This document shows positions 7,313 to 10,722 of a stretch of 64,000 nt of DNA, piece by piece (within the stretch, counting starts at the first letter, position 1; the number at the start of each line of letters is the position of its first letter). Location: positions 310,001-374,000 of the forward strand of contig NZ_AP023366.1 in NCBI RefSeq assembly GCF_015097055.1, given 5' to 3'. This DNA comes from Effusibacillus dendaii (GTDB lineage: Bacteria > Bacillota > Bacilli > Tumebacillales > Effusibacillaceae). The notes beneath the pieces were generated by a model. The model did not search any database and was not told the DNA's origin. It was given only the letters and a program-made list of their open reading frames with translations. Position numbers and translations under genes: made by a program.

Positions 7313-7777
7313 ATGACGAATGAAGAACTGCAACAACTTGTCGAACAATTGTCAGACCGGTTTTTTGGAAAGCCTTTTTTACACCGGGCTTTATTTAACT
7401 CTCGCCTGCAGACAACGGGCGGACGCTACCTGCTGGGCAGTCACAACATCGAAATCAACCCGCGTCCTTTGGAGCTTTATGGGATGGAAGAATTAATTGG
7501 AATTGTGAAACATGAACTCTGTCATTACCATCTTCATTTAAGCCGAGCGGGATACAGGCATAAAGACGCCGATTTTAAAAAGCTGCTTCAGCAGGTAGGC
7601 GGGCACCGCTATTGCAAGGACATGGGCGCTCGGCGAACTGTGAAAGTACGCTATGAATACATTTGTACCGCTTGCGGTCAGAAATTCGAACGCAAACGAA
7701 AATTAAACACGAGAAAATATTGCTGCGGAGTATGCCGCGGTTCATTTAAATTGATTTCGCAACGGCGCCTTTCCTAG
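7313..7777 (+). CDS. SprT-like zinc metalloprotease domain protein
   Basis: A 154-residue member of the SprT family (B. subtilis YdcK type). The zinc/catalytic motif HELCH lies in [13 protein letters not shown] at about 60-72. The C-terminal half is a zinc ribbon with cysteines in YICTACGQ and KYCCGVC. The family is related to the eukaryotic DNA-protein crosslink protease Spartan, but the bacterial function is unproven. It is followed closely by three genes on the same strand ending with a helicase, so it may share an operon with them. Confidence 0.85.
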
Positions 7778-7848
7778 AAGGATTTATGCGCTGTGAAGTC
7801 GAAGAAAAAATGGCAGTCGGGGTTTGGGATTGGATGGAGGGTTGTCAT

Positions 7849-8562
7849 TTGCAGGATGTGATCAGTTTACACCGATACAGCCTGGAGGGGGCATTGAAAC
7901 GGATTTTTTATTTGCGTCGTAGTAGTCTGTCAATAGAGGAACTGGAAACGATTTTGATGGACGAATATTCCTTTCGTGAAAGCCGATCGAAAGAATCTCT
8001 GCGAATTCGTTTGCAGAAATCATTGCAAGCCCAACACGGGCCGTTTGTGTCTGATGGAGATCGGTGGAGGCTGCGGGAAGTGGACGCGGATGCGCTGCAC
8101 CAGGAGATTTATGATCTTTTCCAGCAGTCAAAACAACCGATGAAGCAAGGGGAACTGCTCCGGATGCTTCAGCAGCGAATGAACCGAAGCAAAGGAGAAT
8201 TGATGTCGAAGGTCGATCTGCAAAGAGATTGGCGGTTTGCCCGGCTGGAAGAAGGGGAATGGGTATTGACCGAATGGGATCTGGACACTGTTGATGTCCC
8301 CAAAAAGGGTAAGGAGGAAACCAAAGTGAGTCAAACAAATGATATAGTGGAGCTGGTAACCCACGAGTTGGAAGGTTATCTTGATCAGTTGGCGCAAAGA
8401 GAACAGGAGATTCCACAGGAAGTTATCCGAATGTTTGATTTGGAGGATCTCTCGTCAATTGAACGTTTGATGCAGGAGAAAAGACGTATTTCCTCGTTTG
8501 CTTCCGATCTGCGTGAAATGATTGCAAAATGGAGTCGGCAAACCGATTCGGTTAACGTCTAA
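7849..8562 (+). CDS. Winged-helix-like N-terminus with duplicated helical C-terminal domain
   Basis: A 237-residue protein with no family I can name. The TTG at 7849 is preferred because GGAGGG lies 7 nt upstream; an in-frame ATG at 7786 is only 3 nt from AAGGA. Residues 1-100 (SLEGALKRIFYLRRSSLSIEE...) look like a HARE/winged-helix DNA-binding fold. A charged linker leads to a helical C-terminus whose IPQEVIRMFDLEDLSSIERL...IAKW pattern is repeated in the next gene. It overlaps that gene by TAATG. The context with sprT and a helicase suggests a role in DNA transactions; this is inference. Confidence 0.65.
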   Translation: MQDVISLHRYSLEGALKRIFYLRRSSLSIEELETILMDEYSFRESRSKESLRIRLQKSLQAQHGPFVSDGDRWRLREVDADALHQEIYDLFQQSKQPMKQGELLRMLQQRMNRSKGELMSKVDLQRDWRFARLEEGEWVLTEWDLDTVDVPKKGKEETKVSQTNDIVELVTHELEGYLDQLAQREQEIPQEVIRMFDLEDLSSIERLMQEKRRISSFASDLREMIAKWSRQTDSVNV

Positions 8563-8837
8563 TGCGTACTTTTTCGGACGGTCTTGAGCAGCGGTTTGAG
8601 CGCCTGAAGATTGTGGTCCGAAAGTGGGAAAACCGAATGGAATCGATGCCTCGTCAAATGTTGGAACTATTTGACCAAGAAGATCTTTCAGGCATCGAAT
8701 CGCTGCTGATTGCAAAAAAACAGCTTCGGGAGCAAACGGAACGTCTGAGACAGTTTATTCAAAAATGGGAAAGCCCCAACAACAACATGTTGGGAGTGAT
8801 GGAAACGGATGATGAGAACGTACGAAGCTTTTTTTAA
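8562..8837 (+). CDS. Small helical protein paralogous to the preceding C-terminal domain
   Basis: A 91-residue, highly charged, probably all-helical protein. MPRQMLELFDQEDLSGIE and LRQFIQKWES align with the C-terminal domain of the upstream protein (FD-EDLS-IE-L...K...LR..I.KW). It has no ribosome-binding site of its own: the ATG overlaps the previous stop as TAATG, so translation is probably coupled. Its 3' end overlaps the helicase start by 29 bp. Function unknown; it may bind the helicase or its upstream relative. Confidence 0.65.
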   Translation: MRTFSDGLEQRFERLKIVVRKWENRMESMPRQMLELFDQEDLSGIESLLIAKKQLREQTERLRQFIQKWESPNNNMLGVMETDDENVRSFF

Positions 8838-10722
8838 CCAACTGAAAAGTGTTGGCATACAGCTGAATGAATTGCAAAAACAGGCGGTCACCCATCAGGG
8901 TGGACCGCTTGTTGTATTTGCTGGACCGGGCAGCGGCAAAACGACCGTTTTAACCTGCCGGGCGTCTTATCTGATGCAGGTTGTCCAGATTGAACCACGC
9001 CATTTGTTAATTGTGACGTTTACGAAGGCGGCAGCCCGGGAAATGTCTGATCGATTGGCTTCTCTCCCCGGTATGGATGCGATACGGGCGCAATCCGCAC
9101 GAATTGGAACTTTTCATTCGGTATTTCTCCGGATTCTGTTGCAAGTCATGGGCAGTGTTCCGAAGTTACTTGAAGACCGGGAACAGAGGCAGGTGCTCCG
9201 TCAATTATTGTTGGCTGCCGGGAAGGAAGGCAGTCCGGAGGAAACAGCCGAACTGACCGCTAAAATAGGCTTGTGTAAAAACAAGTTGATCATGCCACAG
9301 CAGATTCGTGCCAAAAAACAGGAGAACATTGAATTCAAAAAGATTTTTGAGCAGTATGAGGAATGGAAACAGGAGCATCACCGATGGGACTATGATGACA
9401 TTCAAGTCGCCTGTTACCGCTTGTTGGCAGAGCGGCCGGACGTACGCAACGAGTATGCGGGGCGCTACCGGCATATTTTGGTCGATGAGTTTCAGGACAC
9501 GAATCTGGTTCAATACGCGATCTTAAAAATGCTGTCAACAAAAGCCGAACTGACTCTTGTCGGGGATGATGATCAATCGATTTACCGCTTCCGGGGAGCC
9601 GAAGTGGACTACCTTCTGTCTTTTGAGCAGCAGCATCGGGCGACGAAAATCGTCCTGGCGACCAATTATCGATCTGCGGAACCGATTATTGCGACAGCGA
9701 AAGCGTCTATCAATCATAATCAAAAGCGGGAACCGAAACATTATACGGGGATCAATCGGTCGGGTGAACGTCCGCTTTTAATCACGCCATCGGATGAACA
9801 TCGGGAAGCGGTTGAAATTGCCAAGCGGATTGACAGAATGTTGCAAAATGGCGATTCCTCACGCAATATAGCGGTGCTGTATCGAACCAATTTGCAGGGA
9901 CAGGCTGTCGTCGAACAGTTGGCGCTTCGTTCAATTCCGTTTTCCTTGCAGGAATCGGAAGACCAGTTTTACCGTCGCTGGCAGGTGCACGATCTGGTCT
10001 GTTATTTTAAACTGGCTTGCAACCTGTCCGACTGGGATTCTTTCAAGCAGATCGTGAACCGTCCCAATCGGTTTATCAATGAAACCGGACTTCAGACATG
10101 GCTTGTTTCGCCAACACAAAACACGGATTTGGCGCAGTTGTCAAAATCGCCGCTGGTTCCCCGCCAACCACGTCACAAGTTGCAGGAACTAACGTGGGAT
10201 TTGAAGAAAATAACAGGGATGTCGCCGCAGGAGGCACTCCGTTTTGTTCGCAAAAAGATCGGGTATGACCGCTATCTGGAAAGCTTTGTGGCACAGACCG
10301 GACAAAATAGGCAAACCGTTTTCGAACCGGTTGAACTGTTGGAACAAATTGTGCGTCCGTTTGGCAGTGTAGCTGATTTTTTAGCCCATGTGGAGAAGCT
10401 GAGAAGTGCGATTGATCAGGCGGGAGGAACGGACAATGGTGTCCAGTTTATGACATTCCATAGAGCTAAAGGGTTGGAATTCAAAACCGTTTTCCTGGTG
10501 GGGGTGGTGAATGGGATTGTGCCGCATAACAAATCATTGTCAGCGAAACACGGGATGGAAGCGTTGGAGGAAGAACGGCGGCTGTTTTATGTCGGATTGA
10601 CAAGAGCGAAAGACCGGTTGATTCTGTCGGCGCCCAAACAGTATCGGGGAGAAAAAGTAAAACAAAGTCCGTTTCTTAAAGAAATTGCGGACACTATCCG
10701 ATTGGCTGAAGTTGGTCCTTGA
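8809..10722 (+). CDS. UvrD/PcrA-family superfamily 1 DNA helicase
   Basis: A 637-residue 3'-5' SF1A helicase, about 100 residues shorter than PcrA. It has a Q motif (LNELQKQAV), Walker A GPGSGKTT at 39-46, motif II VDEFQDTN, motif III GDDDQSIYRFRGA, motif IV TNYRS and motif VI VGLTRAKDR. The region between motifs IV and V, which forms subdomain 2B, is reduced. The full motif set implies an active ATPase. The start overlaps the small upstream gene, implying coupled expression. B. subtilis YjcD-type helicases are the nearest group I can name; the exact role is unknown. Confidence 0.9.
   Translation: MMRTYEAFFNQLKSVGIQLNELQKQAVTHQGGPLVVFAGPGSGKTTVLTCRASYLMQVVQIEPRHLLIVTFTKAAAREMSDRLASLPGMDAIRAQSARIGTFHSVFLRILLQVMGSVPKLLEDREQRQVLRQLLLAAGKEGSPEETAELTAKIGLCKNKLIMPQQIRAKKQENIEFKKIFEQYEEWKQEHHRWDYDDIQVACYRLLAERPDVRNEYAGRYRHILVDEFQDTNLVQYAILKMLSTKAELTLVGDDDQSIYRFRGAEVDYLLSFEQQHRATKIVLATNYRSAEPIIATAKASINHNQKREPKHYTGINRSGERPLLITPSDEHREAVEIAKRIDRMLQNGDSSRNIAVLYRTNLQGQAVVEQLALRSIPFSLQESEDQFYRRWQVHDLVCYFKLACNLSDWDSFKQIVNRPNRFINETGLQTWLVSPTQNTDLAQLSKSPLVPRQPRHKLQELTWDLKKITGMSPQEALRFVRKKIGYDRYLESFVAQTGQNRQTVFEPVELLEQIVRPFGSVADFLAHVEKLRSAIDQAGGTDNGVQFMTFHRAKGLEFKTVFLVGVVNGIVPHNKSLSAKHGMEALEEERRLFYVGLTRAKDRLILSAPKQYRGEKVKQSPFLKEIADTIRLAEVGP

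What the first reader, a model, noticed from the sequence alone, without database searches (positions are those of the whole stretch)
7313..10722. SprT / winged-helix / duplicated-domain / helicase cluster
A SprT-like protease, a winged-helix-like protein, a small protein that repeats its C-terminal domain (FD-EDLS-IE...IxKW) and a short UvrD-family helicase are packed with overlaps. The two domain copies have no family I know. Protease plus helicase suggests processing of protein-blocked DNA, possibly a new repair or conflict-resolution module. The grouping into one function is inference.
Basis: inference. Interest (0 to 1): 0.6.

Follow-up and report, generated by a model that had tools for sequence, protein, structure and literature searches.

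The report
Helicase operon with polymerase-like winged helices
Next to an ordinary protease gene sits a conserved, uncharacterised three-gene set: a DNA-unwinding motor plus two small partner proteins that share one helical domain, one of which also carries a domain related to an RNA polymerase subunit, so the set probably clears stalled machinery from DNA.

Summary
Four same-strand genes are packed at 7313-10722: SprT, a 258-aa protein (WH), a 91-aa protein (REP) and a 637-aa SF1A helicase (HEL). WH is two winged helices plus a C-terminal two-helix hairpin. Its second winged helix is a relative of the N-terminal domain of RNA polymerase delta (profile E 1.1e-5). REP is a stand-alone paralogue of WH's hairpin (profile comparison 98.9%, E 1.9e-17). 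The hairpin matches no curated family. Hairpin 1, hairpin 2 and HEL stay adjacent and in order in six families, even where flanking genes have moved, where WH's winged helices are gone (f181), or where HEL lost its 2B domain (Kyrpidia). HEL is a clade separate from PcrA (support 97/93 and 99/96). SprT is absent from three families that keep the triad, so it is a neighbour, not a core part. WH-REP also exists without HEL in five other families. WH-carrying genomes with HEL share a near-invariant RSRGELMSR motif that the others lack. Best guess: a dedicated helicase complex, targeted by delta-like winged helices and hairpins, that clears stalled transcription or nucleoprotein complexes. Function is inferred, not shown.

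The parts
7313..7777 (+). SprT-family metalloprotease-like gene (HELCH, C4 zinc ribbon); syntenic neighbour, not a constant part
   Evidence: NF003339 211.9 bits; HELCH at residue 67; absent from f4, f5, f25 genomes that keep the triad
7786..8562 (+). WH: tandem winged-helix protein with C-terminal helical hairpin (258 aa)
   Evidence: AlphaFold mean pLDDT 84.6; family found across Bacilli
7870..8079 (+). WH1, first winged helix (residues 29-98); RYSLEG.LKR start conserved in genomes with HEL
8089..8277 (+). WH2, delta-NTD/HARE-HTH-like winged helix (residues 102-164, D.RF...W.L..W)
   Evidence: PDB profile hit to B. subtilis delta 2krc E 1.1e-5; Foldseek 9a6y, 2krc, 2m4k; TIGR04567 18.7 bits, below its cut-off of 42
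8179..8217 (+). RSRGELMSR-type motif (residues 132-144), the segment of WH most specifically conserved in genomes with HEL; it covers the short third helix of WH2
   Evidence: between-family identity 0.75 in HEL+ versus 0.20 in HEL-
8338..8553 (+). Hairpin 1 (residues 185-256), tip F-D-L-E-D-L-S-S-I
8562..8837 (+). REP: 91-aa protein, hairpin 2 (helices 4-38 and 42-70), paralogue of hairpin 1
8809..10722 (+). HEL: UvrD/PcrA-like SF1A helicase, 637 aa, no C-terminal Tudor tail in this genus

Best explanation
WH, REP and HEL form one dedicated SF1A helicase complex. Hairpin 1 (in WH) and hairpin 2 (REP) pair with each other as a heterodimeric helical bundle and dock on the helicase. WH's winged helices, one of them of the RNA polymerase delta type, place the motor on DNA and/or RNA polymerase. 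The helicase then moves along single-stranded DNA, 3' to 5' by family, and strips stalled transcription complexes or other nucleoprotein blocks. In effect this would be a separate-gene analogue of the delta plus HelD pair, with a PcrA-like motor instead of HelD. Shown: domain identities, hairpin paralogy, helicase motifs, co-conservation, and the HEL-specific motif in WH2. Inferred: physical complex, docking partner, polarity, substrate, cellular role. SprT is a frequent neighbour and is not needed.
For: Hairpin1-hairpin2-HEL order is kept in f1, f2, f4, f5, f25 and f181 and in named records of four Tumebacillus species, Kyrpidia sp. Bu79 and Alicyclobacillaceae bacterium Bu37. The triad outlives its flanks: in Tumebacillus about 1-5 kb separates SprT-triad from the phosphoesterase gene, in f4/f5/f25 SprT is gone, and in f181 ccpA follows HEL directly without the tRNA gap. 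In f181 the winged helices are lost but both hairpins and HEL remain. HEL is its own clade including f25 and f181, UFBoot/SH-aLRT 97/93, and 99/96 against the YJ and PcrA groups (f25 left out). In one search every HEL-clade helicase lay in the WH-REP locus, apart from f3, whose copy is split by contig ends. WH2 is delta-like by sequence profile (E 1.1e-5) and fold. The segment of WH most specifically conserved with HEL is RSRGELMSR in WH2. HEL of f2, f5 and f181 carries a Tudor-like tail weakly similar to the PcrA Tudor, the domain by which PcrA binds RNA polymerase (PMC8318588). The delta N-terminal domain anchors delta on RNA polymerase and aids HelD (PMC7749165).
Against: No interaction or function was measured. 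WH-REP exists without neighbouring HEL in f16, f17, f22, f26 and f31, and the f17 and f22 genomes tested have no third SF1A helicase at all, so WH-REP has a life of its own. The delta-like domain is dispensable in f181, which weakens the RNA polymerase arm. The Tudor-like tail is absent in the window's own genus, f4 and f25. A true delta gene is present in all 22 genomes tested. No PcrA helicase-interaction motif was found in WH or REP. Adjacency in related lineages could partly be shared ancestry.
Confidence: 0.4

Rival explanations
1. WH-REP is an independent transcription- or nucleoid-associated pair of Bacilli, and the helicase is a separate gene that came to lie downstream once in this lineage and is merely co-transcribed.
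For: WH-REP occurs in f16, f17, f22, f26 and f31 with varied neighbours and no HEL next door; HEL relatives (the YJ group) exist in families without WH-REP and at other loci.
Against: The triad survives flank changes, SprT loss, winged-helix loss and 2B loss; a WH2 motif is near-invariant only where HEL is present.
Confidence: 0.32
2. DNA-protein crosslink repair operon: SprT cleaves the crosslinked protein, HEL unwinds, and WH-REP recruits.
For: SprT lies immediately upstream in f1, f2, f3 and f181; eukaryotic SPRTN, which carries a SprT protease domain, is a crosslink-repair protease (literature).
Against: f4, f5 and f25 keep the triad with no SprT match in the genome; in f16/f26 SprT is elsewhere; f4 and f5 also keep the neighbouring folE and phosphoesterase genes, so the whole block is syntenic and SprT's position is not specific.
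Confidence: 0.1
3. Anti-phage or mobile-element conflict module (Gabija-like helicase half).
For: HEL's best PADLOC model is GajB, E 3.8e-90.
Against: GajB is itself PcrA-like, no GajA-type gene is adjacent, the locus is a stable chromosomal synteny block, and searches with WH find no match in phages or plasmids and none in viral contigs.
Confidence: 0.03

Closest known systems
RNA polymerase delta subunit (RpoE) with HelD, the RNA polymerase recycling pair of Bacillus subtilis
   Same: A delta-NTD-type winged helix and an SF1 UvrD-like motor acting as partners; delta NTD anchors on RNA polymerase (PMC7749165).
   Different: Here the winged helices are tandem and fused to a hairpin, there is no long polyanionic tail of the delta kind in the window protein, the motor is PcrA-like without HelD's N-terminal arm, the genes form an operon-like set with a second hairpin protein, and a true rpoE exists elsewhere in the genome.
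PcrA/UvrD
   Same: SF1A core with motifs I-VI, 34% identity to the PcrAs of the same genome; the best PDB hit is PcrA 1pjr, E 9e-88.
   Different: Separate clade; 412 bits against the PcrA cut-off of 911.2; Tudor tail missing in the window's genus; hairpin partners in the same gene cluster; no 2B domain in Kyrpidia.
HARE-HTH domain proteins (PF05066)
   Same: Winged helix with the D.RF...W.L..W signature; a clostridial relative of WH passes PF05066, 26.4 against 25.9 bits.
   Different: The tandem winged helix plus hairpin architecture with a stand-alone hairpin paralogue is not in the searched libraries.
Third SF1A helicase group of Bacilli (YJ; from memory probably B. subtilis YjcD)
   Same: Nearest helicase group to HEL in the unrooted tree; tail in several members ends in an SPFL- or SRF-type motif as in HEL.
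   Different: Not next to WH-REP in the four loci inspected; forms its own group (84/84).

Membership tests
SF1A UvrD/Rep helicase | UvrD helicase N- and C-terminal domains with motifs I to VI | tested here: met
   PF00580 232.8 bits and PF13361 174.8 bits; motifs I, Ia, II, III, IV, V, VI found
PcrA (TIGR01073) | Score above curated equivalog cut-off of 911.2 bits | tested here: not met
   412.1 bits; separate clade
PcrA (TIGR01073) | C-terminal Tudor domain | tested here: not met
   Window HEL ends 37 residues after motif VI; a Tudor-like tail with weak similarity is present in HEL of f2, f5 and f181
HelD (NF041464) | Score above cut-off of 419 bits | tested here: not met
   88 bits
HelD (NF041464) | Long N-terminal coiled-coil arm before the motor core | tested here: not met
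   UvrD domain starts at residue 19 of HEL
RNA polymerase delta (RpoE, TIGR04567) | Score above cut-off of 42 bits | tested here: not met
   WH 18.7 bits; the genuine rpoE is at G000:C1:2501645, 110.8 bits
HARE-HTH / delta-NTD superfamily | Winged-helix domain homologous to delta NTD | tested here: met
   Profile of the WH family against PDB delta chains, E 1.1e-5; Foldseek 2m4k rmsd 1.8 over 69 columns, probability 0.98 though E 0.5
HARE-HTH Pfam PF05066 | Window protein itself above the gathering score | tested here: inconclusive
   No hit for the window WH; a clostridial relative passes
SprT family | NF003339 cut-off and HExxH | tested here: met
   211.9 against 113 bits; HELCH
Gabija (GajAB) | Adjacent GajA ATPase/nuclease | tested here: not met
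   Neighbours are SprT, WH, REP and tRNAs
Gre/DksA-type secondary-channel hairpins | Conserved acidic tip | tested here: not met
   Tip residue D221 varies to N/Q outside the HEL lineages; F217 and I225 are the invariant residues near the tip
Delta-HelD-like function | Binds RNA polymerase and displaces nucleic acid | not testable with these tools
   Needs biochemistry

The most novel reading that the evidence does not exclude
A previously undescribed class of SF1A helicase complex in which two paralogous mini-hairpin proteins form a heterodimeric clamp or regulator of the motor, in Kyrpidia next to a motor that has naturally lost its 2B regulatory domain, and in which a delta-type winged helix couples the motor to RNA polymerase: a second, independent RNA polymerase clearance machine in Bacilli.
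Probability: 0.25. Interest if true: 0.75.

Novelty: new variant of a known kind. Interest (0 to 1): 0.5.

Why it matters
If true, it adds a dedicated helicase with its own RNA polymerase- or DNA-targeting subunits to the short list of bacterial machines that clear stalled transcription (HelD with delta, RapA, Mfd, PcrA/UvrD). It also gives a natural series in which domains were lost one by one (three, two, one or no winged helices; with or without Tudor tail; with or without 2B), which makes the role of each part testable. It puts a conserved two-gene family of Bacilli, absent from Pfam and NCBIfam, on the map.

Tried and rejected
SprT as a core member: rejected as a requirement. Hairpin as a Gre/DksA-like secondary-channel arm: the tip acids are not conserved. 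Fold search with REP gave only generic helical hairpins, nothing below E 1; VIA-align on WH listed only generic hairpins for residues 178-258 and does not test the winged helices. PADLOC GajB match: explained by PcrA-like similarity. First genome-contig scan with the single WH protein found nothing; the alignment scan worked. Viral, phage and plasmid searches with WH found nothing. PcrA helicase-interaction motif in WH or REP: none. The first helicase tree contained wrongly framed rows from minus-strand loci and was replaced. A phylogenetic profile linking the YJ helicases to WH-REP: not strict, since f8, f18 and f23 genomes have YJ without WH-REP and f17 and f22 have WH-REP without YJ. The paper defining HARE-HTH was not in the library. 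Promoter and terminator scans of the region were at background.

Full report
Observation. The window is bases 310001-374000 of the single 3.45-Mb contig of a genome whose order includes Tumebacillus; its own genus is possibly Effusibacillus, which is inference. At 7313-10722 lie SprT, WH, REP and HEL on the + strand. SprT is an ordinary member of its family. HEL has all SF1A motifs. WH and REP match nothing above cut-off in Pfam, NCBIfam or PHROGs. They are homologous: E 2e-8 pairwise, and 98.9% probability, E 1.9e-17 profile to profile. AlphaFold models both as antiparallel two-helix hairpins, WH residues 185-256 and REP residues 4-70.

What WH is. The model shows winged helices at about 29-98 and 102-164. 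A profile of the family hits RNA polymerase delta chains in the PDB (E 1.1e-5) and no other family significantly. Foldseek places delta structures among the best hits at probability 0.98-1.00, although no Foldseek E-value is below 0.001. A distant clostridial relative passes the Pfam HARE-HTH cut-off. WH is not delta itself: it scores 18.7 against a cut-off of 42, and a true rpoE is present in this genome and in all 22 tested.

Distribution. In the first 60 relatives the high-scoring WH genes are followed by REP. Across 398 Bacilli genomes, strong WH matches fall in f1-f5, f16, f17, f22, f25, f26 and f31. HEL follows REP in f1, f2, f4, f5 and f25; f3 is cut by a contig end. Family f181 has SprT, two separate small hairpin proteins, HEL and then CcpA; its first hairpin protein has no winged helices. 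Named carriers of the WH-REP-HEL set include four Tumebacillus species, Kyrpidia sp. Bu79 and Alicyclobacillaceae bacterium Bu37. In f16, f17, f22, f26 and f31 WH-REP stands without HEL next door; in f26 a SEC-C-motif protein usually follows, and elsewhere the neighbours differ.

The helicase. HEL forms one clade with the f181 and Kyrpidia copies, apart from PcrA (97/93); without the fast-evolving Kyrpidia row it is also apart from a third group of Bacilli helicases (99/96). In one search the HEL-clade copies all lay in the WH-REP locus; the genomes tested from f16, f17, f22, f26 and f31 have only PcrA-type or other (YJ-type) helicases. Tails with weak similarity to the PcrA Tudor are present in f2, f5 and f181, and absent in f1, f4 and f25. 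Kyrpidia HEL keeps every motif but has 92 residues between the starts of motifs IV and V instead of 263, which amounts to loss of 2B and a little of 2A.

Evidence for one system. (i) The triad holds together while its flanks change: insertions between the phosphoesterase gene and SprT in Tumebacillus, no SprT in f4/f5/f25, no tRNA gap before ccpA in f181. (ii) Parts erode around a constant core of hairpin 1, hairpin 2 and motor: three winged helices in f2 and f5, two in f1 and f25, one in f4, none in f181. (iii) Residues 132-144 of WH are 75% identical between families with HEL and 20% between families without; this is the top window of the whole protein (mean difference 0.09, s.d. 0.17). The motif covers the short third helix of WH2, which in winged-helix folds is normally the recognition helix (general knowledge). 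The control for relatedness is that neighbouring segments of the same proteins do not show the contrast. The HEL-bearing WHs may still be one clade, so this is a shift in constraint, not proof of contact.

SprT. It is adjacent in f1, f2, f3 and f181, missing from the genomes of f4, f5 and f25, and elsewhere in f16 and f26. Its place is explained by a syntenic block (PBP, folE, phosphoesterase, SprT, triad, tRNAs, ccpA, mecA), so the crosslink-repair reading has little specific support.

Mechanism. My best reading is a dedicated helicase complex guided by hairpins and delta-type winged helices that removes stalled transcription or nucleoprotein complexes. Literature support is by analogy only: delta NTD anchors on RNA polymerase and aids HelD (PMC7749165), and the PcrA Tudor domain binds RNA polymerase (PMC8318588). 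I put about 0.6 on 'one complex', and about 0.4 on the full statement with RNA polymerase or nucleoprotein clearance as the job.

Limits. Trees contain long branches. The delta match covers one domain. No complex prediction or experiment was possible. The observation that WH-REP exists without HEL in five families is the strongest argument for caution.

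Noticed in passing
L040:8059-9525, L041:4856-6322, L062:6924-8495, L063:6959-8461: Kyrpidia-type HEL is a natural SF1A helicase with motifs I-VI intact (checked in L040) but with the 2B domain and a little of 2A deleted (92 residues between motifs IV and V against 263 in the window).
   Followed up: partly
L056:4609-6666, L057:4635-6758, L168:3020-5089, L169:6248-8284, L170:6458-8542, L171:6165-8201: In family f26 WH-REP is usually followed by a ~680-aa protein with an N-terminal SEC-C motif; possible partner of WH-REP when no helicase is adjacent.
   Followed up: no
L112, L113, L116-L122, L124-L126: Many clostridial genomes carry one protein with HARE-HTH-like winged helices followed by a long coiled coil and a hydrophobic C-terminus (about 400-660 aa); of three scanned only one gets a Pfam match above cut-off (HARE-HTH).
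   Followed up: partly
L175-L178: In family f181 the WH gene is reduced to a bare hairpin of 77-88 aa, so two tandem hairpin genes precede the helicase, and ccpA follows the helicase directly.
   Followed up: yes
L206:5087-7264, L207:5819-8257, L208:4552-7269: A third SF1A helicase group (YJ) occurs in several Bacilli families at unrelated loci and is distinct from PcrA; in the sampled families it is found where HEL is not.
   Followed up: partly
window:10764-11609: Cluster of six tRNA genes (Asn, Thr, Tyr, Trp, His, Leu) between HEL and ccpA.
   Followed up: no
G000:C1:205325-207181 and G000:C1:2006726-2008618: The genome has two further PcrA-like helicases besides HEL, each in a separate PcrA subclade shared with relatives.
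   Followed up: no
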